From the NCBI RefSeq assembly GCF_026802175.1, contig NZ_CP113797.1, positions 1,589,026-1,653,025 on the forward strand: DNA of 64,000 nt, given 5' to 3'. The DNA comes from Thermocoleostomius sinensis A174 (GTDB lineage: Bacteria; Cyanobacteriota; Cyanobacteriia; Elainellales; Elainellaceae). A model generated the notes under the pieces. It had not been told where the DNA came from. It did not search any database and worked only from the letters and a program-made list of their open reading frames with translations. The position numbers and the translations under genes are program-made. Positions within the stretch are counted from its first letter, which is position 1; each line of letters opens with the position of its first letter. Shown here one piece after another: positions 14,659 to 30,045 of this stretch.

Positions 14659-16383
14659 TCACCCGATTGATCTACGATCGATCCACGACCGATCGTCATG
14701 TTGCAAACAGTCTGCATTCAGCAACGTTAAATCCTGAGTTGATAATACCGAACAGTGATCGATCGTTTGGATTAGTGCTGGAATTCTACCCTGTTCTAGT
14801 TCTGTGATGATCGTTTGAACAAGATCACGAACTGAGCTATGAATTAACCAGTCTTGCCATAGATATGCTGGTGAGAAAGATTGTGCTTCAATTAGCACAA
14901 AATCGATTCCGTGGGTTGTGATAATCTGTTGTAGCTCTGATAGATTACTGCTGTACTGTAAGCGAAGCATATCGGTCAGGCGTTGTTGAATTTGTTGATA
15001 ATAGATGGGATGATGGGGCAAAGCAAACTCGCGCCCTACAAAGACCGATCGTTGCGCAAAAGCAGGCAAATTATCGGCTTCAGGTGCTAACGATGCTATC
15101 AAGGTATCTTTTGGCTGCTGGGATAAATAGGCATACAGATCGGGGACATGCCCCCTGTGCCAACCCTGGAATTTGAAGAATAGCGGTGGAATGGCGGGTA
15201 CAACGGTTACAGCCATTATCAGCAATGCTGCAATGCCGATGAGTACTATCTCGCGGAGATTGAATTGCGATCGCCGGATGCGGTGCCGCCGCCACCAACG
15301 CCAACCTGAAGTCAACAGCACAGTTAAGACAATGCTAGTGGCAATCGGCAACAAAAAACGCCAAGTGTGATAAGTGTAGCGGCTGGGAAAATGCAGTTTC
15401 AGCAGTAGCAATGAAGCTAAACTGAACATCCCTAGGGATGCAATCAACACTTGCCACAGAATTTTGAAGTGGCTTGGGTATCGCATGACGAAAGACGATC
15501 GCCGCAGAAACGGTAGAGCAAATCCTAGCCAAACGATCGAAGGAAACAGGGGAAGTTCCAACCCACTAGAGCTATCAAATATCCATTGAAATAGAGTGAC
15601 GCCAAAGTATTGATTGCGCCCGCCTACGTTATATTCAGGCATCGATCGCATTTGGGCAGCGGTGATCACCGGGCCAACGTCAGATAACCGCAGAGCAAAG
15701 GACAGTAAGACGCTACCTGCAACCACCAGCCCACCACCCCAAATAAGATAGGATGCGCGAGTTTTAGTCAATCGAAGCGATCGATCTTGCCATTCAAACA
15801 ATCGTACTGTCAAAACAGCAAGTTCTAACAACACGAACTGCGGAAAGAATAGCCCCTGAAGCAAAATGGTAACTAGACAAGGAATGAATGAATCTCGCAG
15901 TAGATAATATAAAAAAGCAGCAAAGATAGGATAGACAAAAGCTCTAGGTGTGGCTGAAATTAGATCGTCGTTGAGCCAAAGCTGCTGATTAAATAACACA
16001 GTACTCAACCATGCGGCGAATGGAATTGGCAGAACTAACAACGAGAGATGGAAAAAGTAACTTGTGGCAATCAATCCCAGACCGATCGGTAAAAACTTAG
16101 CAAAGACGATCGGTTCAATGCCAAGCTGAGCCAATACCCAATAAACAAACTGATAACCACTTGGTGCAACGGTATGAAAGTAATTGGCAATTAAATCATT
16201 GGAGAATAGAGTTGGATCTAAAAATCGCTGAAGCCAAACCACATGTTGTCGAGCATCATCTTGAACAATATAAGGATAGCTAAGCGTATAATGTAGTGAA
16301 ATCAAGCCGAAATACAATGGACTCAGCAAACTCATGCCTAGCCACAGTTGCGATCGTAGTGGAGACTGTATCGAATCACACAC
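14659..16383 (-). CDS. Polytopic membrane protein with GT-C-like architecture, 574 aa
   Basis: About ten hydrophobic segments fill the first 400 residues (for example LGMSLLSPLYFGLISLHY, the FHLSLLVLPIPFAAWL region and IVLIGIAALLIMAVTVV), followed by a soluble tail of about 170 residues. An acidic pair in the first outer loop (IVQDDARQHV, about residues 37-46) is where lipid-linked-sugar-dependent GT-C glycosyltransferases keep their catalytic Asp. No known family signature is complete, so the glycosyltransferase idea is inference. It is the last gene of the PKS operon, three bases after the KDSR-like gene. Confidence 0.7.
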   Translation of the reverse strand: MCDSIQSPLRSQLWLGMSLLSPLYFGLISLHYTLSYPYIVQDDARQHVVWLQRFLDPTLFSNDLIANYFHTVAPSGYQFVYWVLAQLGIEPIVFAKFLPIGLGLIATSYFFHLSLLVLPIPFAAWLSTVLFNQQLWLNDDLISATPRAFVYPIFAAFLYYLLRDSFIPCLVTILLQGLFFPQFVLLELAVLTVRLFEWQDRSLRLTKTRASYLIWGGGLVVAGSVLLSFALRLSDVGPVITAAQMRSMPEYNVGGRNQYFGVTLFQWIFDSSSGLELPLFPSIVWLGFALPFLRRSSFVMRYPSHFKILWQVLIASLGMFSLASLLLLKLHFPSRYTYHTWRFLLPIATSIVLTVLLTSGWRWWRRHRIRRSQFNLREIVLIGIAALLIMAVTVVPAIPPLFFKFQGWHRGHVPDLYAYLSQQPKDTLIASLAPEADNLPAFAQRSVFVGREFALPHHPIYYQQIQQRLTDMLRLQYSSNLSELQQIITTHGIDFVLIEAQSFSPAYLWQDWLIHSSVRDLVQTIITELEQGRIPALIQTIDHCSVLSTQDLTLLNADCLQHDDRSWIDRRSIG

Positions 16384-16386
16384 AGT

Positions 16387-17196
16387 TTACCGACCTGATG
16401 TAACTTTAACAACGATGCGATCGAAATACCATTGCAACCCTGGTGCAATTAAGCTGTGAAAGCGTCCAAGAATTGACATTTCCAGTCCTGGTGTAATGGC
16501 AAACGCACCCTTTTCTATGCCAGCAAGAATTGCTCGTGCTACTGCATCTGCATTCCAAACTTCGGCAGTGGCGGTGATGGCTTTGGTTTCCGGTGGTTTG
16601 GTTTGGTTCTCTGCGGCTAGCTGTGGCGTATCGGTATCCGGTGGATAGACAATCGACACGCGAATATTCGATCGCTTCAGTTCTCCCCGCAATGACTCTG
16701 CCAGTCCGCGCAAGGCAAATTTACTCGGGCAGTAGGGCGTGTAGCCATAAATGCCAATCAGTCCGGCTCCCGACGATACTATGACCAAGTGCCCGTGGCG
16801 CTGATGTTCCATCAGCGGTAGCACTGCCCGAATGCAGTACAGGGACCCAAAATAATTCACTGCCATTGTGCGCTCAAAGATTTCGATCGGCAACTCCCGA
16901 AAGTAACCAGGATGAGCAATTCCGGCACAGGTAATCAGCAGATTGGGAGCACCCAATTGACCAATCGCTGCATGGATTGCCTGTTCTGCCTGAAGTCGAT
17001 CGGAGACATCTGCTGATAGTGCCACCACGTGTGCTCGTCCAGCTTGCTGAATTTCTGCCTTTGCTTGTTCCAACTTGGCACAATCGCGGGCAACGATCGA
17101 TACATTCATACCCTGTTGCACCAGAAGCTTAGCTGTGGCCTTGCCGATGCCGCTAGAACCGCCGGTAATGATTGCATGTCGCCGAGTATCATTCAT
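16387..17196 (-). CDS. SDR resembling 3-ketodihydrosphingosine reductase, 269 aa
   Basis: Cofactor motif TGGSSGIGKAT, then the NADP-type segment VARDCAKLEQAK, TCAGIAHPGYF, NYFGSLYCIRAVLP and the catalytic YCPSKFAL. The segment IVYPPDTDTPQLAAEN is close to the hallmark of 3-ketodihydrosphingosine reductases, which reduce the keto group of a long-chain base. A hydrophobic C-terminal region (residues about 225-260) could bind membrane. No serine palmitoyltransferase-like gene is near, so the substrate may be a 3-oxo long-chain product of the adjoining PKS. It follows the SRPBCC gene by one base. Confidence 0.85.
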   Translation of the reverse strand: MNDTRRHAIITGGSSGIGKATAKLLVQQGMNVSIVARDCAKLEQAKAEIQQAGRAHVVALSADVSDRLQAEQAIHAAIGQLGAPNLLITCAGIAHPGYFRELPIEIFERTMAVNYFGSLYCIRAVLPLMEHQRHGHLVIVSSGAGLIGIYGYTPYCPSKFALRGLAESLRGELKRSNIRVSIVYPPDTDTPQLAAENQTKPPETKAITATAEVWNADAVARAILAGIEKGAFAITPGLEMSILGRFHSLIAPGLQWYFDRIVVKVTSGR

Positions 17197-17197
17197 A

Positions 17198-17836
17198 TTA
17201 CCCGCCCGATCGCCGCGTAATTTCTTGCCCCAAGGCCGCCATTGTATCGTCTAGTGAATTTTTATAGATGTTGAAAAACAAATCTCGTGTAGGCGATGAA
17301 CCGGGATCGATCGACACGCGATGAGTAACTAAAACTTGATTAGAGCCGACAGACTCAAGTTGCCATACGCCTTGCAGCGACTCGACATCGCCCTCAATGA
17401 CATTAAAGGAAATTTGTTGAGGATAGCTTTCAGTAGCAGAAATGACCACGCGAGTGCGGCGAGTGAACGGAAACACGCGAACAACATTGACCTGTTCAAA
17501 TACTTTCTGATTACCATTGCTCTCTAGAAGCCGGCTTGTTTCCACGTCTGGAAAAAACGAGGCGAAATTATTATAGTCGGTCAAAGCAGCCCACGCCGCC
17601 TCCACCGACCCCGTTGCCAGCACTTGACCTACATACTGCCCAGATTCACCGCTAACCGACACTTCCCCTGGTTGCAAGGCCAGTAATTGTTCAGTGGGTT
17701 GATGAATGATTCGATCGCCCCCAACGGCTGAGGAAATTGGCGCAACGGTTAACCACACCATCACGGCTAAGCTGCTCATTCCTAGATAGATAGATTTCCG
17801 CAAGCGCATACCAGGCATAGAGTTTGACCAACCCAT
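17198..17836 (-). CDS. SRPBCC (START/polyketide-cyclase-like) protein with N-terminal export signal, 212 aa
   Basis: Residues about 11-38 (basic RLRK, a hydrophobic stretch, then PISSAVGG) look like a signal peptide or anchor. The rest is a lipid-cup SRPBCC domain: SVEAAWAALTDYNNFASFFPDVETSRLL, then FPFTRRTRVV and WQLESVGSNQVLVTHRVSI. Such domains bind hydrophobic ligands and include Coq10-like carriers and polyketide cyclases. Here it would act outside the cytoplasm or at the membrane. The ATG at 17836 is preferred over a TTG six codons earlier. It lies between PKS and SDR genes in one operon. Confidence 0.8.
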   Translation of the reverse strand: MGWSNSMPGMRLRKSIYLGMSSLAVMVWLTVAPISSAVGGDRIIHQPTEQLLALQPGEVSVSGESGQYVGQVLATGSVEAAWAALTDYNNFASFFPDVETSRLLESNGNQKVFEQVNVVRVFPFTRRTRVVISATESYPQQISFNVIEGDVESLQGVWQLESVGSNQVLVTHRVSIDPGSSPTRDLFFNIYKNSLDDTMAALGQEITRRSGG

Positions 17837-17884
17837 AGAATAATTTCCGCCCAATTGTATCAGATTGATTTCCGTTGATTTCGT

Positions 17885-19855
17885 TCAATTCGCCTCAATG
17901 CCATACCGCTGTCGCTGAAATGGATAGGTAGGCAGCACGACTTTACGACGCGAGTAGGGACGATCGAACGCAACCCAGTTCACCGATGCTCCCTGCACAT
18001 AATACTTTGCCACTTGATGCAAAACAGTCCGCCAATCTTCCAAACTTAAACATAACTCAGCTAACTGAGTGCCCAACTTGTCGGTCAGCGAGAGATACAA
18101 TGGTTTAGAACCATCCCCAGCCCTCAGATCTACCATCAGTTCAGAACTAGGAGGGTGAGATAGCGCCCGACCCAAAATCACTCCCTCGGTCGCCTCTCCA
18201 GCCATACAACTCGTCAATTTCTCACGTAATTCCTCCATAGAAGCCGCGACGATCGCCAGCCGATAGTTAAAGTGCGATCGCCCCGTATTCGCCGTAAAAC
18301 ACACATCCGCCACATCCAGATCGCCATGAGTTGCCAAGTGCTGGGCATAGCAGGATATCAACTGCTTCAGCGCCACCTCTGTTCGAGCCGACAGCGTCAA
18401 CACATGCGCCAACCGCTCCTTTCCGCCCGACTCCCAACTCCCGACTCCCGACTCCCGACTCCCTCCCTCTGCCACCACCACATGAGCATTGCTGCCATTA
18501 AATCCAAAAGCACTGACTCCGGCAATACGCGGCGCCTCTGCCGATTGCCAAACAACCCGACGGGTGGGAACGGCGATCGACAACTCGTTCCAGCGAATCT
18601 GAGGATTAGGCGTTTGGAAATGGAGATTCGCGGGAATTTCACCCTGTTGCAGCGACAGCACCACTTTGATCAAGCCAGCGATGCCAGCCGCCGCCTCGGT
18701 GTGCCCAATGTTCGTTTTCACCGAGCCAATCAGCAGAGGATGAGAGGACGATCGATTGCCAAACACCTCTCCCAACGCATTCACTTCAATCGGGTCGCCC
18801 AAGGACGTGCCTGTTCCGTGTGCTTCGACATAGCTGACTTGTGAGGGCTGAATCCGGCTCTGCTGTAAAGCTTGGCGAATGACCGCTTGTTGCGCCGGGC
18901 CATTGGGTACCGTTAAGCCGCTGCTGCGCCCATCGTGGTTGACAGCAGAACCGAGAATGGTGGCAAAAATGGGATCTCCTTGAGCAATCGCGTCGCTGAG
19001 CCGCTTCAGCACAACCATGCCACAGCCCTCCGATCGAACAAATCCATTGGCGTCTGCATCAAAACTTCGACAACGCCCCGCTGGAGAAAGCATCCGTGCC
19101 TTGGAAAAGTTGATTGTCGATTCGGGAGAAAGAATCCGGTTCACTCCTCCTGCCAACGCCAAATTACACTCTTGCTGCCGCAAACTTTGACATGCTAAAT
19201 GCACCGCCACCAGCGACGAGGAACAGGCCGTGTCTACCGATAGGCTTGGGCCAGTTAAACCGAGCAGGTATGATAGGCGACCTGCTGCGGTACTGTGGGT
19301 GTTGCCGATCGTCAGGTAAGCGTCAATTTCCGTTCGATCGCGACTGAGCAACCGCTGCCAGTAATCAATGCTGCAAATACCAACAAAGACCCCTGTCTGG
19401 GTATTGATCAGTCGATCGGGGGCAACCCCGCCGTGTTCCAGTGCTTCCCAACTCACCTCCAACAACAACCGCTGCTGTGGATCAAGGCTGACAGCTTCTC
19501 GCGGGGCAATGCGGAAGAAGGATGCATCAAAATCGTACAAATGGGGCAAAAATCCACCGGAGCGCGCCACCATTTTTCCAGGTGCATCCGGATCGGGACT
19601 GTAGTAGCGGTCAATGTCCCAGCGATCGATCGGAATATCCGTAATGGCATCTTGCCCATCGTGCAAAAGCTGCCAGAATTCAGCAGGATTGTCTGCCCCT
19701 GGAAATCGACAGCCTATACCGACAATGGCGATCGGTTCGTGTTTGGCTTGGTCTAATGCTTGTTCCAATGCCTCCACTTTTGCCTGGAGGTCTTTAATAG
19801 CCAGCAAGGCACGTTTCGTAGGAGATAACGCTTCGGCTTGGTCGGCAGTGTTCAT
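17885..19855 (-). CDS. PKS protein with a ketosynthase but no acyltransferase or ACP, 656 aa
   Basis: Residues 1-38 form a coiled-coil docking segment (SPTKRALLAIKDLQAKVEAL). The ketosynthase spans about 40-455: AIVGIGCRFPGAD, the nucleophile in DTACSSSL (about residue 212), EAHGTGTSLGDP (about 345) and KTNIGHTEAAAG (about 385). After it come the KS-to-AT linker (LTLSARTEVALKQL) and then directly the post-AT linker (PTYPFQRQRYGIE); the AT core with GHSxGE is absent. There is no ACP or thioesterase. It probably receives a chain from the PKS encoded 10 bases upstream. A heptamer repeat encodes the segment near residue 465. Confidence 0.9.
   Translation of the reverse strand: MNTADQAEALSPTKRALLAIKDLQAKVEALEQALDQAKHEPIAIVGIGCRFPGADNPAEFWQLLHDGQDAITDIPIDRWDIDRYYSPDPDAPGKMVARSGGFLPHLYDFDASFFRIAPREAVSLDPQQRLLLEVSWEALEHGGVAPDRLINTQTGVFVGICSIDYWQRLLSRDRTEIDAYLTIGNTHSTAAGRLSYLLGLTGPSLSVDTACSSSLVAVHLACQSLRQQECNLALAGGVNRILSPESTINFSKARMLSPAGRCRSFDADANGFVRSEGCGMVVLKRLSDAIAQGDPIFATILGSAVNHDGRSSGLTVPNGPAQQAVIRQALQQSRIQPSQVSYVEAHGTGTSLGDPIEVNALGEVFGNRSSSHPLLIGSVKTNIGHTEAAAGIAGLIKVVLSLQQGEIPANLHFQTPNPQIRWNELSIAVPTRRVVWQSAEAPRIAGVSAFGFNGSNAHVVVAEGGSRESGVGSWESGGKERLAHVLTLSARTEVALKQLISCYAQHLATHGDLDVADVCFTANTGRSHFNYRLAIVAASMEELREKLTSCMAGEATEGVILGRALSHPPSSELMVDLRAGDGSKPLYLSLTDKLGTQLAELCLSLEDWRTVLHQVAKYYVQGASVNWVAFDRPYSRRKVVLPTYPFQRQRYGIEAN
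18426..18460. repeat. Intragenic heptamer repeat, five units (KS protein linker)
   Basis: Five tandem units of CCCGACT or CCCAACT lie inside the reading frame of the 656-residue PKS protein, immediately after the ketosynthase domain. They are translated as a Gly/Ser/Glu-rich tract with a seven-residue period. Confidence 0.85.
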
Positions 19856-19865
19856 GTCGATCGAT

Positions 19866-22800
19866 CTAATCCTGCAAGCGATTCAACTCATGCAGCAACA
19901 GCGCTTCGGCTTCAGATTCCGAAAGTTGCTCCACATCTATCAAATCAGGGGTGGGTGGGGTGCGAGAAACGGAGGCATGATCCTTTGCAGATTGTCCCAG
20001 TCGATTGCTCAGATGCTCGGTCAGTGCTGCCAAGGTGGGATAGTCGAACAGCAACGTGGAAGATAATGAGCAACCGAGGCTGGTTTGTAAGCGGTTTCTC
20101 AGTTCCACCGAGGTTAATGAATCCATGCCCAACTCAGACAATCCTTGGTGAGGATCATCCAGCAGTGATGGTTCCAACCCCAACACTTTTGCCACTTGAA
20201 CGCGAACATGATCAAACAGCAATCGAGGGCGATCGTCCACCGAGGCGGCTTCCAGCATTTGCAGAAATGAAAGAGTAGTGGTTGATGGTGCAGTGATCAC
20301 GTCAGACAAAAACGCGGTCAGCGCTGCGGGAATACCCTCCGTGGCATCGAAAGATCGATCGATCGGCAAGACGCCCATTTGTCCCATTGGCTGTGATATT
20401 AGGTAATCCAGGATTTCTAGCCCTTGGGCAGGTGAAATTGATCCTATGTTTGAGAGCGTAGATCGTTGAGGAGGGGACGATCGCGCCGCCAGCCCAATCT
20501 CGCTCCATGCCCCCCAGTTGATGCTCAGCCCCGGTAACCCAATCGCCCGTCGTGCTTGTGCCAGCGCATCTAAAAAGGCATTTGCGGCGGCATAGTTGGC
20601 TTGTCCTGCTGCTCCTAGCAGCGATGCTGCCGAGGAAAACAACACAAAAAGATCGATCGGCTGATCTTGTGTCAAGCGATGCAAATTCCAAGCGCCCTGT
20701 ACTTTGGCAGCCATAACGCGCTCGAAATGATCCCAGGTTTGCTGTTGAAGGGTGCGATCGTCAATTAGTCCAGCGGCGTGGAGGATGCCTTTGAGGGAGT
20801 TGGGAGGGTTGAAGAGGTAAGGTTGGAGAATGGGCCGGAGTTGTTCTAGCTCTGCTACGTCAGCGTGGGCGATCGTAATGGTGGCTCCAGCGGCTTCTAG
20901 TTGACGAATCGTGGTTTGGGCCACAGTAGAGGGAGCATTGCGACCAATCAGTAACAAATGGGTAGCTCCCTTGTTTACAAGCCATTGCGCCACTCGCAAA
21001 CCCAGATCGCCCAGTCCGCCGGTAATTAAATAAGTTCCATTTTGACAAATTTGAATCGATTGGGTCTGAGTTGGTTGAGGCGGCGTGATTACCAGCTTAC
21101 CGATGTGTTTGGCTTGCTGCATAGTCCGAAATGCTTCGATCGCCTTTCCACTAGAAAAACTCGTTAAGGGCAGCGGGTGCAGGTGTTGAGCTTGAAATTG
21201 GTGCATTAACGAGTGGAGGCTCGATCGCACCCCATCTGGCTGTTGCTGCGCGACCTGCATGAGATCGACCAAAAAATAAGAAACATCCGGCCTACTCTGC
21301 GCAACCTGGGCGGCGCTCCAGACGCCGTGTTTGCCAATTTCCACAAAGCGCCCGTTGGCACGCAACACCGATAAACTTTTGGGAATGAACTTGTCCGACA
21401 AGCAGTTCAGCACCACGTCTACACCTTGTCCTTGAGTAGTCGCCATAAGGGTATCGGCAAAGTCCAGCGTGCGAGAATTCATCACGTGTTTGATACCGAT
21501 CGATCGAAGAAACGTCCATTTGCTGGGCGATGCTGTAGCAAAAATTTCTGCTCCAATCTGCTGGGCAATCTGAACTGCTGCTAATCCGACTCCACCCGCC
21601 GCTGCATGAATCAAGATGCGATCGCCAGGCGCTAGCTTTGCCAACTGTTTTAGCGTGTAATCAGCGGTTAGAAACGCAGTGGGAATCGTAGCTGCCGCCG
21701 CAAAACTGAGCAGCTTTGGTTTCAGCGCTACTAGCCGGGCATCCACTGTCACATACTGACTGAAGCTACCAGACGCGATCGCCACCACCGCATCACCAAC
21801 CTGAAAATGAGTGACATCCGAACCAACCGCGACAATTTCGCCCGCACATTCCAAACCCAGTTGTTCCGCACCCGGATACAGATCCAGCGCATTCAGAACA
21901 TCGCGAAAGTTCAATCCACTGGCATGAACCTGAATTTCCACTTCGCCTGCTTCGGGTGAACGTCGAGGACTCGATCGCCACATCAACGAATCGAGCGTGC
22001 CGCGATTAGTTATATCTAGTTTTAGAGAATCTATTTCAGAATTGTTTTGAGAATTTGATTGATGACTTGACTTGAATTGATGTTGAACTAATCGTGCTGC
22101 TAATCGATCGCCCTGACGAAAAGCAATTTGGCTTTCATAGTCATTGTTGTCGAGAATTTCATAAGCCAATCCAGTAACATCAATTGAATCTGGATCAAGA
22201 TCAACTTGTGTACAGTGTAATTCTGGGTGTTCCAGCGCGATCGTGCGTCCTAGTCCCCACAGCGGCGCTTGTCCAAGTGTACTGAACGGGCGATTGGTCG
22301 TTCCAATCATTTGAGCGCCACGAGTGATTAGCCATAAGCGCGGCGGCTGAGATAATTTGGCATTGATTAAAGCTTGCGTTAAATACAAAGCACTCTGACA
22401 ACTTCGTTGAACGGATTCGTTGAGCAAGTCCTCCTCACTATTAGGAACAATACTCCAAAGATGAACCACCCCCTGCAATGGTCGATCGCTCTCCGCCCCC
22501 CTTAAAACCACAGACAGCAAAGATTGAAACTCTTCTGGGTGGGCTGGATTAATAAAAAACGATCGATCAGTTTGCTGAAAGCTATCACCCGGGTATACAA
22601 CAACACAGATCTGCTGCTGAGCTTCCAGACACGCCTGTAATTTCTCCGCAATGCCCCCAGCATCCGCGAAAATCAGCCACGTACCAGAACATATCCGATC
22701 GTCTGCCCTCCATTCCCAACTCCCGATTCCCAATTCCCGATTCCCGATTCTCTGCCACTCCACCCCATACAGCCAATCCTGCCAAGCGGACGATGCAGTT

Positions 22801-25800
22801 CCCAACACAGCTTCGCGACGAGTGCACTGAGCGGTCAATCCTTCTACCTGTGCCACTCGATTGCCAGTTTCATCCCATATTGTGACATCGGCAATGACTG
22901 AAGAAGACCGATTGGCGATCGATCGAATCTGCGCATGACTCCAAAGGGTGGACGTGGGCGATTGATGCAGGTAAAACCGATCTAAACTAATCGGAATATA
23001 AGTTTCAGATTGAATCACTGGCGGTAATGCCGCTAATATCACCTGAAGACAAGCATCGAATAATGCTGGATGGAATTGATAGTTGACATGATCGAGACTT
23101 AACGTAGACGGAAGCTGTACTTGTCCCAACGCTTCACCATCTCGTCGCCACAGTTGTTTGATTCCTTGGAAATATGTGCCATACTCAAGCCCTTGCATCT
23201 GACACCGTTGGTAGTGTGTTTCAGACGATCGTGTTTCAGTAAATGATTGTTGTAATTCAGGCAGAACGGATTTTAGTGCTTCATGGTTAAGCGCAGGGTT
23301 TGTCTTAAATTCTATAATCCTTCCAGATGCATGTAATATCCAATCATCTGGTTGTTCTTCAGTGGCGAGGCTATAAATCTCAAATACTGCTTCATTTCCC
23401 TTTCTCGTTATGATGAATTGAAGCGTTTTTACTTGTGCATCTGCTAGTAACAATGCTTGTCGAATCGTTACCTGTTCCAGAAACACATCTGTCTTCAAGA
23501 TGGACTTCCCAGCCGCTAGCGCCATGTCCAAGTACGCTGTAGCAGGGACGATCGCCTGTCCATATACTCGATGATCAGCAAGCCAAGCGGGGGCGGTGGT
23601 ACAAAGGTGAGCCTGAAAGACAATCGACTTCAAGGCAGTGGGTAAGCGATGTCCCAATAATGGATGGATAGTTGGGGATTGGGGATTGGGGGTTAGGGAC
23701 TCTAACCAATAGCGTTGGCGTTGGAAGGGATAGGTGGGAAGTGACAGGCGTTGGTAGGAATCGCCTTGATAAACTTGTTGCCACTCGATTGTCAGTCCTC
23801 GCTGATAGAGGTGTGCAAGACTCTGCAAAAGCTGTTGCCAGTCAGAGCGATCCGGGTGCAAACTCGGCAGCCAGGAGATAGAGGGGGAATCGAACTGCGA
23901 TCGGGCCATGCCGATCAGCACGGGTTTGGGGCCACATTCAATCGCGATATCAAACCTCAGGGTTTGTAAGGTATTGAGGCTGGCAGCAAACTGTACAGGT
24001 TGGCAAATATGGTGCACCCAGTACTCTGGTGTGGCAATGGCTTCTGTGATTTTTTCGCCAGTTACATTCGAGATTAGATCAAGCTGCGGGGAAGTATATT
24101 GCACCGTCCGCGCTACCTGCTCAAACTCAGCCAACATCGGCCGCATCATCGGGGAATGAAAGGCGTGAGAGACATCAAGCGATCGGGTTTGGATATTTTG
24201 AGCTTGTAGATCCGCCACAATCGCCTGCAAGTCCTCGTTAGGGCCTGAAATCACCGTCTGTTCAGATCCGTTAATGGCAGCAACGGCAACGTTTTGGTAA
24301 GCCGCGATCGTCGCTCTCACATCGGCTGAATTGGCAAGCACAGATACCATACCGCCTGTTGGTAATGCCTGCATCAATCGTCCCCGTGCGGCCACTAACT
24401 TTAGTCCATCTTCCAGACTAAACACCCCTGCTACACAAGCTGCTACATATTCGCCCAGGCTATGACCCATAACAACTGTGGGTAGAATGCCCCACGATTG
24501 CCACAGTACTGCCAAGGCATATTCGATCGCAAACAAAGCAGGCTGTACAAAAGCCGTTTCTACAAGGGATGAAGCATGAGGGATGAGGGCTGAATACCCG
24601 ATCGCATCTTGCCGATCGGTTTCAGCATTAAGAACGGTAGTACAGCGATCGATCGCGGCTCGAAAGACGGGTTGGGTTTCGTACAACTCGCGGCCCATAT
24701 TGAGATACTGTGATCCTTGTCCCGTAAATAAGAAGGCGATTTTAGGACGAGATTGAGCAAGACCCGGTGCGATCGCCGGAATCTGGCCGGCACACCATTT
24801 AGAAAGTTGTTGACGTAGCGCTTGAACTGAATCAGCGACCACTGCCAAGCGATATTGAAAATGCGATCGACCCACATTTGCCGTAAAACACAAATCTGCC
24901 AACGAAACAGTGGAGTGCATCATCAAAAACCGCTCATATCGTGCTGCCAATTGCCGTAACGCCCCTTCATTCTTAGCCGACAACGCCAGTACCTGCCACG
25001 CTCCCCTCCTCTTCCGACTTCCGACTTCCGACTTCCGACTTCCGACTCCCTCAAACTCCTCCAACACCAAATGTACATTTGTGCCACCAATCCCCAATGA
25101 GTTTACACCTGCCCGTCGCGGATGTTCGATTGCCTGCCACTCCGATAGCACTGTATTGACGTAAAATGGACTGCTGGCAAAGTCGATTTGAGGATTGGGT
25201 ATCTCAAAATGCAGACTGGGCGGCAATTTTTTGTGGTGCAACGCCAACACGGTTTTGATAAACCCCACCACGCCAGAGGCAATGTTGAGATGCCCGACGT
25301 TGGTTTTCACCGACCCGATCGCACAAAACTGAGTCTGCTGAGTGCCAAGGCGAAAGGCTTGCGTGAGTCCGGCAATTTCGATTGGATCGCCCAACGCTGT
25401 GCCAGTGCCGTGTGCTTCCACATAGGTAACAGTAGCGGGATCAATGCCTGCGATCGACAAGGCTGTGGCGGTCACAGTGGCTTGTCCTTCAGCGCTGGGA
25501 GCCAGATACCCAACCTTGGTGCTGCCGTCGTTGCCGATCGCCGATCCTTTAATTACCGCATAGATTTGATCACCGTCCTCGATTGCGTCCGCCAGTCGTT
25601 TCAACACTACCAACCCTACACCACTGCCAAAAATTGTCCCCTGTGCCCGCGCATCAAACGCACGGCAATGTCCATCCGGTGACAAAATCAGCCCCTCTTG
25701 ATATAGATGTCCCACCTTCTGTGGCGTATGCACTGACACCCCACCCGCCAAAGCCATGTCGCACTCACCGTTTAGCAGGCTTTGTGTCGCCAAATGAATC

Positions 25801-28442
25801 GCCACCAATGACGTAGAACAAGCCGTTTGCACATTCACACTCGGACCCGTCAGGTTGAGTTTATAAGAAACGCGAGTAGTCAGGTAATCCTTATCATTGC
25901 CGATCGTCATCTGCAAGCCGCCCATTGAACTCAAGGTCACGACCTGTAGGGAATCGTTTTCATCGAAGCGCTGCCGATTGGGATAGACATGATTCAACAA
26001 ATAGGTATTCATCGACGCCCCGGCATAGAGACCGATCGCACCAGGATAGGTAAAGGGGTTGTAGCCCGCATCTTCCAGGCTTTGCCACGCACATTCCAGC
26101 AACAGCCGCTGCTGTGGATCTATGACCTCGGCTTCTTTGGCGCTATAGCCAAAAAACTCAGCATCAAAGCGTTCAATATCGGACAGAATTGGGCTAGCTT
26201 TAACGTAGTGGGGATGTTGAAGCAAGGCTGGATCAACCCCCGATGCTAGAATTTCCGCATCGCTGAACCAGGAAATGGACTCAATCCCCTCACACAGGTT
26301 TTGCCAAAACTGAGCGATCGAATCGGCTCCAGGAAATCGTCCTGCCATGCCGATCACGGCAACGTCTGTATCAATGCCCATAGTTTCCGTTTGACGCTGA
26401 CGGAATGGACGCTTCAGTCGAGGTTGCAGCGGTTCAGTTTGGGACGATTGGCTCATGTAACTTGCCAAGGTGGCGATCGTAGGATGTTGAAACAGATCGA
26501 TTGCCAACAACGCATAACCCGCCTGCTGCAAGTGATGCAGCACCTGCATCAACCGCAGCGAATTACCACCCAGTTCAAAAAAATTGTCTTGCGTCCCAAC
26601 TTGCTCTAATTCCAATACATCTTGCCAGATCTCCACAAGCTGCTGTTCTAATTCAGTTTGCGGCAGAGCCGCCGGGGTCGATCGCGCCTTCACCAATCCT
26701 TCGATCTCATTCAGAATTGAATCGAACTCGCCCGCCTGAAACCGCTGGACTAATTGGCTGCGCTGAATTTTGCCGATCGTCGTTTTGGGAATCTCGTGGG
26801 GATTCACCGGAATCAGATAATCCGGACTGACACCAAGCCGAGTCATTACCGTGCGGCGAATCGATCTCACCAAGTCACCAATCGCTTGATCTGAATCCGC
26901 AGGGCTGAAGAAGATCACCAGTCGATCGGTGGTATCATCTGCTCGGCGCACAGCACAGGCGGCTGTATAGGAAGTCACGACTGGTAGTTCTTCCACGATC
27001 GCTTCAATCTCGTGGTTATAGTAATTGGCGCCGTTGATAACGATGACTTCCTTTTGCCGACCTGTAATTGTCAAGCGACCGTGACGCAGAACCCCCAAAT
27101 CTCCCGTAATAAACCAGCCGTCTTCTGTAAAAATTTCATCGTTGAGATCAGGGCGATGATAATAACCACTTGTCACTGTTGCTCCCCGCACTTGCAACAG
27201 CCCGATCGTGCCTTCTGACACCAATTGATTCTGTTCATCGACAATACGAATGGCTACACCCGGAATTGGGTTGCCCACTTCCACAAAGGTATCGCTGTCT
27301 GAGGTGGTTGCCAGTGAGAAATTATGGGAATGAACAATACCTGAACAGGTTTCCGACATCCCATAGCCCGGACTCACAGCCGTTTGGCTTAACCCATACG
27401 GCAGTAGTAGTTCCAAAAATTGGCGTGTCGTTTTGCCCACCACCGCTTCGGCCCCGTTGCCCATCCACTGTACACACGACAAATCCCACGATCGATTGGC
27501 AATTTCATCAGCCCGATCGTTCACCAGCCCATAGGCAAAATTAGGGGCCCATGTGGCTGTCACCCGATAGCGATCGATCAACTCCAGCCAGTGCAACGGT
27601 TCTTGCAAAATGCGTTCAATCGGCACATGAATTTGTTGACAGCCCACAAACACTTCGGTTAAGTGAAACATCACCAAACTGGCCACATGTTCCAGTGGCA
27701 TCCAGTTCAGCGTAATGGAATTGCCCGATAGTCCATTTACTGTCGCCATGCCATAGACGCTTGCCAGCAAATTTCGCGCCGTCAGCATCACGCCCTTGGG
27801 ATTACCCGTACTGCCCGAAGTCAACAGAATCAGCGCCAATTGGTCGAGATCAGCCTGGTAAGGCTGCTTGTCCGGTTCGTTACACAGGAGAGAGTCGATC
27901 GCCACAATTTTAGATAAAGCGTTCAACTCAGACTTTGACCTCAACCCATCACCGATCGCTCCCTCTAAATTTTGGCTCGTCAGCACCGTTGCCCGCTCCA
28001 ACAACTGTGTTGCATAGTGCACCGGATGAGCCTTGTCTTGATCAAGGGTATAGGTAGGCGGTACAGCAATCGGCACAGGCACAAACCCACCCAACACACA
28101 GCCCCAAAACCCTGCTAGAAATTCCTGCGGTTGTGCAAGTTGCAGAATAACAGGATCGCGTGGCTGCAACCCCGATTTCCTCAATCCTGTCAGCACTCGC
28201 TGGGATCGATCGAGCAACGTTGAATAAGCCTGAAACTGTTCGGTTCCATCTGGTTGAAGACAAAGAATCCCCATATCAGACTGGGCCGCCCGTTGCAACA
28301 CATCAGGCAGCGTCAATTTCCACAACTCCTCTGAAATCGTGGCTCCTTCACATATCGATTGCCTAAGCATCGTTGCATCCAGATGCTGGCTCATCTGGGC
28401 ACACGGTTGATAACGATCGATCGATTCAGGATGATTTCCCAT
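19866..28442 (-). CDS. Type I polyketide synthase with acyl-ligase loading module and one fully reducing module, 2858 aa
   Basis: Domain order (approximate residues): AMP-dependent acyl ligase 30-590 (LLTSGSTGNPKG, YGMSETCSG, TGDLG), ACP 598-665 (LGGNSL), KS 690-1125 (TACSTSL, EAHGTGT, KTNVGHL), AT 1230-1515 (GHSLGE, and AFHS, which indicates malonyl-CoA), DH 1595-1880 (LADHRVYGQ), KR structural part 1890-2150, ER 2150-2460 (AAAGGVGLAA), KR 2470-2650 (TGGLGDLG), ACP 2740-2810 (LGMDSL). It ends in a docking tail (SESEAEALLLHEL). It should load an acid, extend it by two carbons and reduce it fully. The ligase NWMPLEHVASLV motif differs from classical FAAL enzymes, so the starter is uncertain. 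First gene of a five-gene operon. Confidence 0.95.
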   Translation of the reverse strand: MGNHPESIDRYQPCAQMSQHLDATMLRQSICEGATISEELWKLTLPDVLQRAAQSDMGILCLQPDGTEQFQAYSTLLDRSQRVLTGLRKSGLQPRDPVILQLAQPQEFLAGFWGCVLGGFVPVPIAVPPTYTLDQDKAHPVHYATQLLERATVLTSQNLEGAIGDGLRSKSELNALSKIVAIDSLLCNEPDKQPYQADLDQLALILLTSGSTGNPKGVMLTARNLLASVYGMATVNGLSGNSITLNWMPLEHVASLVMFHLTEVFVGCQQIHVPIERILQEPLHWLELIDRYRVTATWAPNFAYGLVNDRADEIANRSWDLSCVQWMGNGAEAVVGKTTRQFLELLLPYGLSQTAVSPGYGMSETCSGIVHSHNFSLATTSDSDTFVEVGNPIPGVAIRIVDEQNQLVSEGTIGLLQVRGATVTSGYYHRPDLNDEIFTEDGWFITGDLGVLRHGRLTITGRQKEVIVINGANYYNHEIEAIVEELPVVTSYTAACAVRRADDTTDRLVIFFSPADSDQAIGDLVRSIRRTVMTRLGVSPDYLIPVNPHEIPKTTIGKIQRSQLVQRFQAGEFDSILNEIEGLVKARSTPAALPQTELEQQLVEIWQDVLELEQVGTQDNFFELGGNSLRLMQVLHHLQQAGYALLAIDLFQHPTIATLASYMSQSSQTEPLQPRLKRPFRQRQTETMGIDTDVAVIGMAGRFPGADSIAQFWQNLCEGIESISWFSDAEILASGVDPALLQHPHYVKASPILSDIERFDAEFFGYSAKEAEVIDPQQRLLLECAWQSLEDAGYNPFTYPGAIGLYAGASMNTYLLNHVYPNRQRFDENDSLQVVTLSSMGGLQMTIGNDKDYLTTRVSYKLNLTGPSVNVQTACSTSLVAIHLATQSLLNGECDMALAGGVSVHTPQKVGHLYQEGLILSPDGHCRAFDARAQGTIFGSGVGLVVLKRLADAIEDGDQIYAVIKGSAIGNDGSTKVGYLAPSAEGQATVTATALSIAGIDPATVTYVEAHGTGTALGDPIEIAGLTQAFRLGTQQTQFCAIGSVKTNVGHLNIASGVVGFIKTVLALHHKKLPPSLHFEIPNPQIDFASSPFYVNTVLSEWQAIEHPRRAGVNSLGIGGTNVHLVLEEFEGVGSRKSEVGSRKRRGAWQVLALSAKNEGALRQLAARYERFLMMHSTVSLADLCFTANVGRSHFQYRLAVVADSVQALRQQLSKWCAGQIPAIAPGLAQSRPKIAFLFTGQGSQYLNMGRELYETQPVFRAAIDRCTTVLNAETDRQDAIGYSALIPHASSLVETAFVQPALFAIEYALAVLWQSWGILPTVVMGHSLGEYVAACVAGVFSLEDGLKLVAARGRLMQALPTGGMVSVLANSADVRATIAAYQNVAVAAINGSEQTVISGPNEDLQAIVADLQAQNIQTRSLDVSHAFHSPMMRPMLAEFEQVARTVQYTSPQLDLISNVTGEKITEAIATPEYWVHHICQPVQFAASLNTLQTLRFDIAIECGPKPVLIGMARSQFDSPSISWLPSLHPDRSDWQQLLQSLAHLYQRGLTIEWQQVYQGDSYQRLSLPTYPFQRQRYWLESLTPNPQSPTIHPLLGHRLPTALKSIVFQAHLCTTAPAWLADHRVYGQAIVPATAYLDMALAAGKSILKTDVFLEQVTIRQALLLADAQVKTLQFIITRKGNEAVFEIYSLATEEQPDDWILHASGRIIEFKTNPALNHEALKSVLPELQQSFTETRSSETHYQRCQMQGLEYGTYFQGIKQLWRRDGEALGQVQLPSTLSLDHVNYQFHPALFDACLQVILAALPPVIQSETYIPISLDRFYLHQSPTSTLWSHAQIRSIANRSSSVIADVTIWDETGNRVAQVEGLTAQCTRREAVLGTASSAWQDWLYGVEWQRIGNRELGIGSWEWRADDRICSGTWLIFADAGGIAEKLQACLEAQQQICVVVYPGDSFQQTDRSFFINPAHPEEFQSLLSVVLRGAESDRPLQGVVHLWSIVPNSEEDLLNESVQRSCQSALYLTQALINAKLSQPPRLWLITRGAQMIGTTNRPFSTLGQAPLWGLGRTIALEHPELHCTQVDLDPDSIDVTGLAYEILDNNDYESQIAFRQGDRLAARLVQHQFKSSHQSNSQNNSEIDSLKLDITNRGTLDSLMWRSSPRRSPEAGEVEIQVHASGLNFRDVLNALDLYPGAEQLGLECAGEIVAVGSDVTHFQVGDAVVAIASGSFSQYVTVDARLVALKPKLLSFAAAATIPTAFLTADYTLKQLAKLAPGDRILIHAAAGGVGLAAVQIAQQIGAEIFATASPSKWTFLRSIGIKHVMNSRTLDFADTLMATTQGQGVDVVLNCLSDKFIPKSLSVLRANGRFVEIGKHGVWSAAQVAQSRPDVSYFLVDLMQVAQQQPDGVRSSLHSLMHQFQAQHLHPLPLTSFSSGKAIEAFRTMQQAKHIGKLVITPPQPTQTQSIQICQNGTYLITGGLGDLGLRVAQWLVNKGATHLLLIGRNAPSTVAQTTIRQLEAAGATITIAHADVAELEQLRPILQPYLFNPPNSLKGILHAAGLIDDRTLQQQTWDHFERVMAAKVQGAWNLHRLTQDQPIDLFVLFSSAASLLGAAGQANYAAANAFLDALAQARRAIGLPGLSINWGAWSEIGLAARSSPPQRSTLSNIGSISPAQGLEILDYLISQPMGQMGVLPIDRSFDATEGIPAALTAFLSDVITAPSTTTLSFLQMLEAASVDDRPRLLFDHVRVQVAKVLGLEPSLLDDPHQGLSELGMDSLTSVELRNRLQTSLGCSLSSTLLFDYPTLAALTEHLSNRLGQSAKDHASVSRTPPTPDLIDVEQLSESEAEALLLHELNRLQD
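22711..22752. repeat. Intragenic heptamer repeat, six units (DH to KR/ER linker)
   Basis: Six tandem heptamers (CATTCCC, AACTCCC, GATTCCC, AATTCCC, GATTCCC, GATTCTC) lie in the PKS frame between the DH domain and the KR structural region. Confidence 0.85.
23674..23701. repeat. Intragenic heptamer repeat, about four units (AT to DH linker)
   Basis: GGGGATT twice, GGGGGTT and AGGGACT in tandem, in the opposite orientation to the other PKS repeats. It is translated as the TPNPQSP stretch just before the DH domain. Confidence 0.75.
25011..25045. repeat. Intragenic heptamer repeat, five perfect units (KS to AT linker)
   Basis: CTTCCGA is repeated five times without error, then a related CTCCCTC. 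It encodes the Gly-Ser-Arg-Lys-rich tract straight after the KS domain. Confidence 0.9.
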
Positions 28443-28816: not shown

Positions 28817-28842
28817 ATCTTCTGCCATTATTCTGATTGAAC

Positions 28843-30045
28843 ATGGAGACGATCACACTAACTATTTCCGATGAAACGTTACGAGATGGCGAGCAGCAAG
28901 TTGGGTTGTTATTTACCCCTGAAATGAAATACAACTTAGCGCATCAAATTGCCAAAACAGGAGTGCATCAAATTGCCCTGATGCCTGCCGTTCATGCGAC
29001 AGAAGAACAGCTTGTTGAAACGCTGGTAATGCAAGGGCTTGAAAAACGTATTGCCGCTTCTACCATGATGACGCGATCGTTCATTGATCTATCTAAATCT
29101 TGTGGCGTCAAGCAAATTATTTTGTTTCATGCTGTGTCCGATCGGCTGTTGTTCTTACGTGATGTTGAAATCAGTCAGCAGCCCCTATATCAGGGGAAAA
29201 CCATTGATGATTCAATACCTAACGCTGTAATCGATCGGCTTCGCCAAACAATGTTACAAAAAGTAGTTGAGCATTTGCGATACGCTGCTAGTCAAGGATT
29301 GAAAATCTATTTCGCCGCTGAAGATGCCAGTCGGGCTGATTTTGATTTTCTAGTCGAGTGCATTCGCGTCTTTATGCCATACCTGCAACAGTTTTTGTTG
29401 TGTGATACTGTAGGCGTTCTAACCCCTGAAAAAACGTTTGTCTGGATGCGCGATCTGTTGGAATATACCAATCATCCGTCTTTGTCGGTACATTTTCACA
29501 ACGATATGGGACTAGCGCTGGAAAACACGATTCAAGCCGTTGTTGCAGGCGCGGTGGGAATTTCCGGTACATTTGGCGGTATTGGCGAACGATCGGGGAA
29601 TGTCGCTCTAGATCAGGTTTTAAACGGGCTACGGCTGCGGTTTGGCTGGGAAGTGGACGGCATTGATTATGATGCGGTGGCTGCCCTCAGCGACTACTTC
29701 GCGCAACACAATATTCGTGCCCATCCTCCCTATTCTCCACAATCCCAACGCCACGAAGCGGGAATTCATGTTCACTCTCTTCTGCGCGATCGCCACAGCT
29801 ATGCCATTTTTCCCTATGGACAACCGGAGATCTGGTTTGGCAAATGTAGCGGCGTCAGCAACGTGCAATACTTGTTTGAGCGCCACTTATGCCACCCCCT
29901 GACCCGCGACCACTATGAACGCTTGAGCCTTGCCATCAAGACCCTAGCTATTCAGGAAAATCGATCGTTTTCAGTTGCAGAGGTGGTGCAGATGCTCCAG
30001 TCAGGAAAACTAGGGACAGATTTATCCCCGCTTGATCCTCCCTAA
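28843..30045 (+). CDS. DRE-TIM synthase of the isopropylmalate/homocitrate synthase type, 400 aa
   Basis: The fold condenses acetyl-CoA with a 2-oxoacid. Visible signatures are SDETLRDGEQQVGLLF at the start and VHFHNDMGLALENTIQAVVAGAVGISGTFGGIGERSG-type segments with the metal-binding HxHND. The C-terminal leucine-sensing domain of LeuA is absent, and the active-site loop differs from both LeuA and NifV, so the 2-oxoacid is unknown. The ATG at 28843 is close to the family start; an ATG two codons earlier is equally possible. It is divergent from the PKS operon, whose starter it might influence, but that link is inference only. Confidence 0.8.
   Translation: METITLTISDETLRDGEQQVGLLFTPEMKYNLAHQIAKTGVHQIALMPAVHATEEQLVETLVMQGLEKRIAASTMMTRSFIDLSKSCGVKQIILFHAVSDRLLFLRDVEISQQPLYQGKTIDDSIPNAVIDRLRQTMLQKVVEHLRYAASQGLKIYFAAEDASRADFDFLVECIRVFMPYLQQFLLCDTVGVLTPEKTFVWMRDLLEYTNHPSLSVHFHNDMGLALENTIQAVVAGAVGISGTFGGIGERSGNVALDQVLNGLRLRFGWEVDGIDYDAVAALSDYFAQHNIRAHPPYSPQSQRHEAGIHVHSLLRDRHSYAIFPYGQPEIWFGKCSGVSNVQYLFERHLCHPLTRDHYERLSLAIKTLAIQENRSFSVAEVVQMLQSGKLGTDLSPLDPP

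What the first reader, a model, noticed from the sequence alone, without database searches (positions are those of the whole stretch)
17885..19855. KS-only PKS protein with the acyltransferase cleanly missing but docking partner present
Seen: the KS domain has all three catalytic motifs. The KS-AT linker runs straight into the post-AT linker, with no GHSxGE or AFHS/YASH core, no ACP and no releasing domain. Its N-terminal coiled coil and the SESEAEALLLHEL tail of the upstream PKS look like a matching docking pair. So the chain is likely handed to a KS that has no built-in extender. Inference: it may use the upstream AT, act on a free acceptor, or release the chain by condensation.
Basis: partly seen in the sequence, partly recalled or inferred. 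Interest (0 to 1): 0.65.

Follow-up and report, generated by a model that had tools for sequence, protein, structure and literature searches.

The report
Acyltransferase-less ketosynthase in lipid pathway
A cyanobacterial enzyme that joins carbon chains has cleanly and anciently lost its usual building-block loading domain but is kept under strong selection beside a fatty-acid-loading partner, apparently as part of an undescribed pathway that builds sphingolipid-like amino lipids.

Summary
ORF 17885-19855(-) is an intact ketosynthase (Cys211, His346, His385) with docking helix, KS-AT linker and post-AT linker, but no AT, ACP or releasing domain. Against CurL the AT is excised between residues 584 and 590.

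It is neither a recent deletion nor decay. Thirteen KS sequences from 13 genomes form one clade, all with the catalytic triad, dN/dS about 0.1. A fourteenth copy runs off a contig end. The nearest sister (one more genome) carries a half-deleted AT with its nucleophile lost.

All these genomes carry the FAAL-ACP-KS-AT-DH-ER-KR-ACP protein that sits upstream here, and the docking motifs persist even where the two genes are unlinked. They also carry an SDR closest to 3-ketodihydrosphingosine reductase and, elsewhere in the chromosome, a PKS ending in an alpha-oxoamine synthase closest to serine palmitoyltransferase.

Best reading: a docked, split-off condensing subunit that borrows malonyl-ACP made by its partner's AT, in a PKS-built sphingoid-base-like lipid pathway. 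Architecture, ancestry, selection and co-occurrence are shown; malonyl source, product and physical docking are inferred. The pathway context is the more interesting result.

The parts
17885..19855 (-). AT-less ketosynthase, 656 aa, whole ORF
19742..19855 (-). N-terminal docking helix (aa 1-38), class 2-like
   Evidence: conserved in 13 of 13 orthologues; weak matches to CurK/L and CurG/H docking structures (E 0.18 and 0.45)
18467..19738 (-). KS domain (aa 40-463) with Cys211, His346, His385
   Evidence: dN/dS 0.05-0.08
18176..18406 (-). KS-AT linker (aa 484-560)
   Evidence: PF22621 and PF22336
18086..18106 (-). deletion junction (aa 584-590) where about 281 AT residues are missing
   Evidence: alignment to CurL 4mz0
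17888..18025 (-). post-AT linker (aa 611-656, LPTYPFQRQRY)
19866..28442 (-). partner FAAL-ACP-KS-AT-DH-ER-KR-ACP, 2858 aa, with malonyl-type AT motifs (GHSLGE, HAFH)
   Evidence: motifs; orthologue in every genome with the AT-less KS
19869..19925 (-). C-terminal docking tail of the partner (LSESEAEALLLHELNRLQD)
   Evidence: conserved in 11 of 11 orthologues examined
17198..17854 (-). SRPBCC (Polyketide_cyc) protein with an N-terminal hydrophobic segment; putative lipid carrier
16387..17196 (-). SDR, closest solved relative 3-ketodihydrosphingosine reductase TSC10
   Evidence: co-occurrence with the AOS
14659..16383 (-). 574-aa multi-membrane-span protein without a known family; conserved QDDxRQH near the N-terminus; GT-C glycosyltransferase-like only by inference
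28837..30045 (+). HMGL/homocitrate-synthase-like enzyme, divergent neighbour of the FAAL-PKS wherever that end was seen

Best explanation
The protein is a functional condensing subunit split off from, and docked to, the FAAL-PKS encoded directly upstream. A free fatty acid is adenylated by the FAAL, loaded on the first ACP and extended with malonyl by the FAAL-PKS, which fully reduces the new unit. The chain on the last ACP is passed, through the C-terminal tail and N-terminal helix docking pair, to the cysteine of the AT-less KS. The KS needs no AT of its own because it condenses the chain with malonyl-ACP charged by the partner's AT, most simply on that same last ACP, giving one or more further elongations. 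The lengthened chain is finished by a second PKS elsewhere in the genome (KS-AT-DH-ER-KR-ACP) whose C-terminal alpha-oxoamine synthase releases it onto an amino acid. The TSC10-like SDR then reduces the 3-keto group, giving a sphingoid-base-like amino lipid. Shown: architecture, intact triad, ancestry, purifying selection, co-occurrence. Inferred: physical docking, which malonyl-ACP is used, order of the proteins, product.
For: Clean AT excision with both linkers kept. Catalytic Cys-His-His in 13 of 13 orthologues, dN/dS about 0.1 and 0.05-0.08 in the KS. One clade 100/96 nested in AT-bearing modular KSs. Orthologue of the FAAL-PKS in all genomes with the KS and in none of 14 same-family genomes without it. 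Docking motifs conserved on both proteins even where the genes are unlinked. PKS-AOS also occurs without this KS, so the strict partner is the FAAL-PKS. In the window genome the only ATs are those of FAAL-PKS, PKS-AOS and FabD. AOS closest to serine palmitoyltransferase, SDR closest to TSC10; the two co-occur in 31 genomes where 3.4 are expected and are adjacent in 14. G007 carries the whole set in one cluster. AT loss also in the PKS-AOS of G018 and G027, with only FabD left as an AT in G018.
Against: No biochemical data. Class 2 docking motifs are common in cyanobacterial PKSs, so motif conservation does not prove this pairing. Co-occurrence counts are not corrected for relatedness. The NCBIfam score of the AOS domain is higher for BioF than for SPT and reaches no cut-off. 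The FAAL-PKS of G140 and G216 lacks a detected AT-less KS, though both contigs break there. The AlphaFold model was unusable.
Confidence: 0.5

Rival explanations
1. Bridging KS: it takes the chain from the FAAL-PKS and condenses it directly onto malonyl held by the ACP of the PKS-AOS, so the chain enters that protein past its own KS.
For: All genomes with the AT-less KS also have the PKS-AOS, truncated in fragmented assemblies; the PKS-AOS has no N-terminal docking helix of its own.
Against: The PKS-AOS has its own KS with an intact triad and occurs without the AT-less KS in G009, G018, G027 and G110.
Confidence: 0.2
2. Free-acceptor KS: it extends the docked chain with malonyl on the housekeeping AcpP charged by FabD, like a fatty-acid condensing enzyme.
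For: FabD is present in every genome checked; in G018 an AT-less PKS-AOS exists with FabD as the only AT of the genome.
Against: KS ancestry lies among modular PKS KSs, not FabF; a retained docking helix and post-AT linker suggest a type I PKS partner.
Confidence: 0.12
3. Release or head-to-head condensation: the KS joins two acyl chains or releases the chain by condensation, loosely like Pks13.
For: The KS protein has no ACP or thioesterase; an FAAL-loaded chain is available upstream.
Against: A dedicated alpha-oxoamine synthase exists for release; no carboxyacyl-ACP and thioesterase of the Pks13 type are in the protein.
Confidence: 0.08
4. Non-condensing transfer subunit that only moves the chain between the two PKSs.
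For: No AT and no ACP of its own.
Against: Both histidines needed for condensation are kept in all orthologues; non-elongating KSs usually lose one of them (general knowledge).
Confidence: 0.07
5. Remnant of a broken PKS without function.
For: The AT region is deleted.
Against: Purifying selection and triad conservation over a deep clade; presence in further cyanobacterial families.
Confidence: 0.02

Closest known systems
CurL KS-AT (curacin PKS, PDB 4mz0) with class 2 docking domains CurK/L and CurG/H
   Same: Same KS type, linkers and N-terminal helix; aligns over its full length apart from the AT
   Different: CurL keeps its AT in cis; here the AT and all later domains are gone
trans-AT PKS KS domains (for example PksJ, PksL, PDB 7zma)
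   Same: KS followed by KS-AT linker and post-AT linker without an AT
   Different: KS of cis-AT ancestry, no dedicated trans-AT in the genome, partners keep their own ATs
Caulobacter AasR-AcpR-SPT sphingolipid route (PMC9386255)
   Same: Fatty acid loaded on a dedicated ACP, then released by an alpha-oxoamine synthase onto an amino acid, followed by a dehydrogenase step
   Different: Here the chain is elongated by type I PKSs before the alpha-oxoamine synthase, which is fused to a PKS
Fungal sphinganine-analogue pathways (fumonisin, sphingofungin; general knowledge)
   Same: PKS chain released by an alpha-oxoamine synthase, then a ketone reduced
   Different: Bacterial, FAAL-primed, AOS fused to the PKS, extra AT-less KS
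Olefin synthase (OLS) of cyanobacteria
   Same: FAAL-ACP-primed type I PKS acting on a fatty acid
   Different: DH and ER present, no sulfotransferase or thioesterase; the chain is passed on instead of being decarboxylated

Membership tests
trans-AT PKS | modules of the system lack an AT | tested here: not met
   True for this KS only; FAAL-PKS and PKS-AOS of the window genome have ATs
trans-AT PKS | a dedicated free-standing AT besides FabD | tested here: not met
   Three PF00698 matches in the genome: two PKS ATs and a 313-aa FabD-sized frame
trans-AT PKS | KS belongs to trans-AT KS clades | tested here: not met
   Nested among KSs of AT-bearing cyanobacterial modules; nearest single-domain structure match CurL, 702 bits against 393 for 7zma. 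No curated trans-AT reference set was used
class 2 docking domains | helical C-terminal tail after the ACP and N-terminal coiled coil before the KS, at the subunit junction | tested here: inconclusive
   Motifs conserved on both sides; PDB matches weak, E 0.18 and 0.45; tail alone none; binding not tested
alpha-oxoamine synthase (C-terminus of the third PKS) | fold-type I PLP domain with the PLP lysine and active-site histidine | tested here: met
   PF00155; TLSKSFAS and DALSHNS aligned with serine palmitoyltransferase 3a2b
serine palmitoyltransferase | reaches a curated SPT profile cut-off | tested here: not met
   NF047600 333 of 640 bits; bioF scores higher at 368.5 of 426
serine palmitoyltransferase | uses L-serine and a long acyl chain | not testable with these tools
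   needs an enzyme assay
3-ketodihydrosphingosine reductase | closest characterised relative is a KDS reductase and it reduces 3-ketosphinganine | tested here: inconclusive
   TSC10 is the best solved relative, 128 against 103 bits for the next; generic SDR in NCBIfam; activity not tested
Pks13-type condensing PKS | ACP-KS-AT-ACP-TE in one protein | tested here: not met
   Only the KS is present; 556 bits against a cut-off of 2100
olefin synthase | C-terminal sulfotransferase and thioesterase on the FAAL-PKS | tested here: not met
   The FAAL-PKS ends with an ACP and a docking tail

The most novel reading that the evidence does not exclude
A cyanobacterial sphingoid-base pathway in which FAAL-loaded fatty acids are elongated on type I PKSs before an alpha-oxoamine synthase releases them, and in which the AT-less KS is an outboard condensing subunit that lets a one-module PKS elongate repeatedly by sharing one AT and one ACP between two KSs.
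Probability: 0.33. Interest if true: 0.8.

Novelty: new variant of a known kind. Interest (0 to 1): 0.58.

Why it matters
It is an example of AT loss in the cis-AT lineage with a surviving intermediate: nucleophile lost and AT half-deleted in one genome, AT fully excised in its sister clade, KS kept throughout. It offers a two-protein system in which one AT could serve two KSs. It also points to a candidate genetic basis for sphingoid-like lipids in cyanobacteria; a 2022 study states that no cyanobacterial sphingolipid enzyme had been characterised and no genetic basis reported (PMC8895605). A 2025 review of FAALs does not mention sphingoid or alpha-oxoamine partners (PMC11837247).

Tried and rejected
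Recent deletion or assembly artefact: rejected. Decay: rejected. Membership in trans-AT PKSs: rejected on three features. Derivation from the PKS-AOS KS: rejected, separate clades. AlphaFold of the KS (6 sequences, pLDDT 41.8) and of the 574-aa protein (3 sequences, pLDDT 47.5) were too poor, so no fold search was run. The docking tail alone found nothing in the PDB. PDB codes 7ZMA/7ZSK/7ZMD were not found in the held papers. Literature searches for a PKS-built sphingolipid pathway in cyanobacteria gave nothing relevant. One query had a wrong frame.

Full report
OBSERVATION. ORF 17885-19855(-) (656 aa) contains a complete KS, the KS-AT linker and the post-AT linker, and no AT, ACP or release domain. 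The CurL structure (4mz0) gives the edges: residues 5-584 align with CurL 8-591, residues 590-654 with CurL 873-937. The AT has been cut out almost exactly. The gene lies 10 bp from the upstream PKS and 30 bp from the next gene, and the further downstream genes are 1-3 bp apart, so it looks like part of an operon.

NOT RECENT, NOT DECAYING. Twelve of 36 same-family genomes (the window's included) have a stand-alone KS ORF of this kind. A scan of 388 cyanobacterial genomes added G164, from another family, and later work added G234, where the gene runs off a contig end. All 13 full KS sequences lack the AT and have the Cys-His-His triad. All 11 with a complete 3' end keep the post-AT motif LPTYPFQR or a close variant. 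dN/dS is about 0.1 overall and 0.05-0.08 in the KS for the closer pairs; only the scar region (aa 561-610) is relaxed. The 13 form one clade (bootstrap/SH-aLRT 100/96) inside AT-bearing module KSs of cyanobacteria (same). The nearest sister (92/91) is a 733-aa protein of G330 (L161:660-2861). It keeps an intact KS triad and about half an AT, in which GHSxGE has become AHGVGE and the core is deleted. SRPBCC and SDR genes follow it just as in the window. The simplest reading is that AT loss went through a decayed-AT stage and was completed once, in the ancestor of this clade.

PARTNER. The upstream 2858-aa protein is FAAL-ACP-KS-AT-DH-ER-KR-ACP. Of 26 same-family genomes tested, its orthologue is in all 12 that have the KS and in none of the 14 that do not (Fisher P 1e-7, not corrected for relatedness; the G019 match is a different PKS without a FAAL). 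It is also in G164, G234 and G330. The genes are adjacent in G000, G004, G007, G023, G024, G164 and G234, and unlinked in G002, G003, G021, G022, G030, G033, G035 and G330. The C-terminal LSExEAEALLLxEL tail and the N-terminal SPTKRALLAIKxLQAKL helix persist in both situations. This fits class 2 docking domains, the type reported for cyanobacterial ACP/KS junctions (PMC9113145). In the window genome these are the only such tail and helix on a PKS, because the third PKS starts at its KS and ends in an AOS.

PATHWAY. The third PKS (G000:C1, about 1,178.7-1,186.7 kb; L108) is KS-AT-DH-ER-KR-ACP plus a C-terminal alpha-oxoamine synthase, AOS. The closest solved structure of that domain is Sphingobacterium serine palmitoyltransferase (1e-71; PLP lysine and histidine aligned). 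NCBIfam scores BioF above SPT, both below cut-off, so the amino-acid substrate is open. The SDR two genes downstream of the KS has TSC10 3-ketodihydrosphingosine reductase as its closest solved relative. Across 388 genomes AOS and SDR co-occur in 31 (3.4 expected, P 1e-34, not corrected for phylogeny) and are adjacent in 14. G104 has a FAAL-ACP-AOS fusion beside the SDR, a version without PKS elongation. The complete genome G007 holds PKS-AOS, HMGL-like gene, FAAL-PKS, AT-less KS, SRPBCC, SDR and the 574-aa membrane protein in one cluster. Together this indicates that the KS belongs to a PKS-built, sphingoid-base-like amino-lipid pathway, spread over two loci in the window genome and over more in some relatives.

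AT SHARING. In G018 and G027 the PKS-AOS itself lacks an AT, and in G009 it carries only a fragment. In G018 the only AT of the genome is a 298-aa FabD. The KS of these proteins falls in the PKS-AOS clade, not in this one, so AT loss happened independently in this pathway. Malonyl supply in trans is therefore plausible for this pathway in general.

MECHANISM. I favour a docked outboard KS that takes the reduced chain from the last ACP of the FAAL-PKS and condenses it with malonyl supplied by the FAAL-PKS AT. This accounts for the missing AT and ACP, the docking pair, the intact triad and the dependence on FAAL-PKS rather than on PKS-AOS, since PKS-AOS also occurs without this KS in G009, G018, G027 and G110. 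The ACP that carries the extender, the number of rounds and the product are inferred. Rivals are listed separately.

COMPARISON AND NOVELTY. The KS-plus-linkers architecture resembles that of trans-AT PKS modules, but the KS is of cis-AT ancestry and no dedicated trans-AT exists in the genome, so it may work like, and is not a member of, that group. Activation, ACP loading, alpha-oxoamine synthase and a dehydrogenase step resemble the Caulobacter route (PMC9386255). PKS elongation before the AOS resembles fungal sphinganine-analogue pathways (general knowledge). A 2022 study stated that no cyanobacterial sphingolipid enzymes had been characterised (PMC8895605); searches of the held papers found no later account, but most subscription journals are not held. 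I rate it a new variant of a known kind.

Noticed in passing
L161:660-2861 (G330:C209): Sister of the AT-less KS with a half-deleted AT (GHSxGE changed to AHGVGE), followed by SRPBCC and SDR genes: a transitional form of AT loss.
   Followed up: yes
L109:7879-14598, L110:3157-11409, L111: PKS-AOS proteins of G018, G009 and G027 have lost or nearly lost their own AT independently, with a P450 gene upstream; G018 has FabD as the only AT in the genome.
   Followed up: partly
L150:7156-10461 (G104): FAAL-ACP-AOS fusion (1101 aa) next to the TSC10-like SDR: a candidate minimal sphingoid-base synthase without PKS elongation.
   Followed up: partly
window 28837-30045 (+): HMGL/homocitrate-synthase-like gene is the divergent neighbour of the FAAL-PKS in every genome where that end was seen; its role in a lipid pathway is unexplained.
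   Followed up: partly
L103 (G048:C1 2059000-2078900): A different cluster with two AT-less KS proteins (620 aa stand-alone; KS-ACP-TE), P450, fatty acid desaturase, CMAS-type and carboxyl methyltransferase, and a FAAL-like AMP ligase.
   Followed up: partly
L132:702-3536, L114:15820-18564, L035:12269-15211: KS-truncated AT-ACP proteins in other cyanobacterial PKS clusters, with AT matches limited to about positions 2-117 of 319 of the Pfam profile.
   Followed up: partly
L035: A contig filed under Candidatus Gracilibacteria carries a typical cyanobacterial modular PKS; probably a binning error.
   Followed up: no
window 17885-19855, aa 464-477, and the equivalent linker of the upstream PKS: Low-complexity insert (GGSRESGVGSWESG; GVGSRKSEVGSRKRR upstream) in the KS-AT linker, possibly a short repeat inserted in frame.
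   Followed up: no
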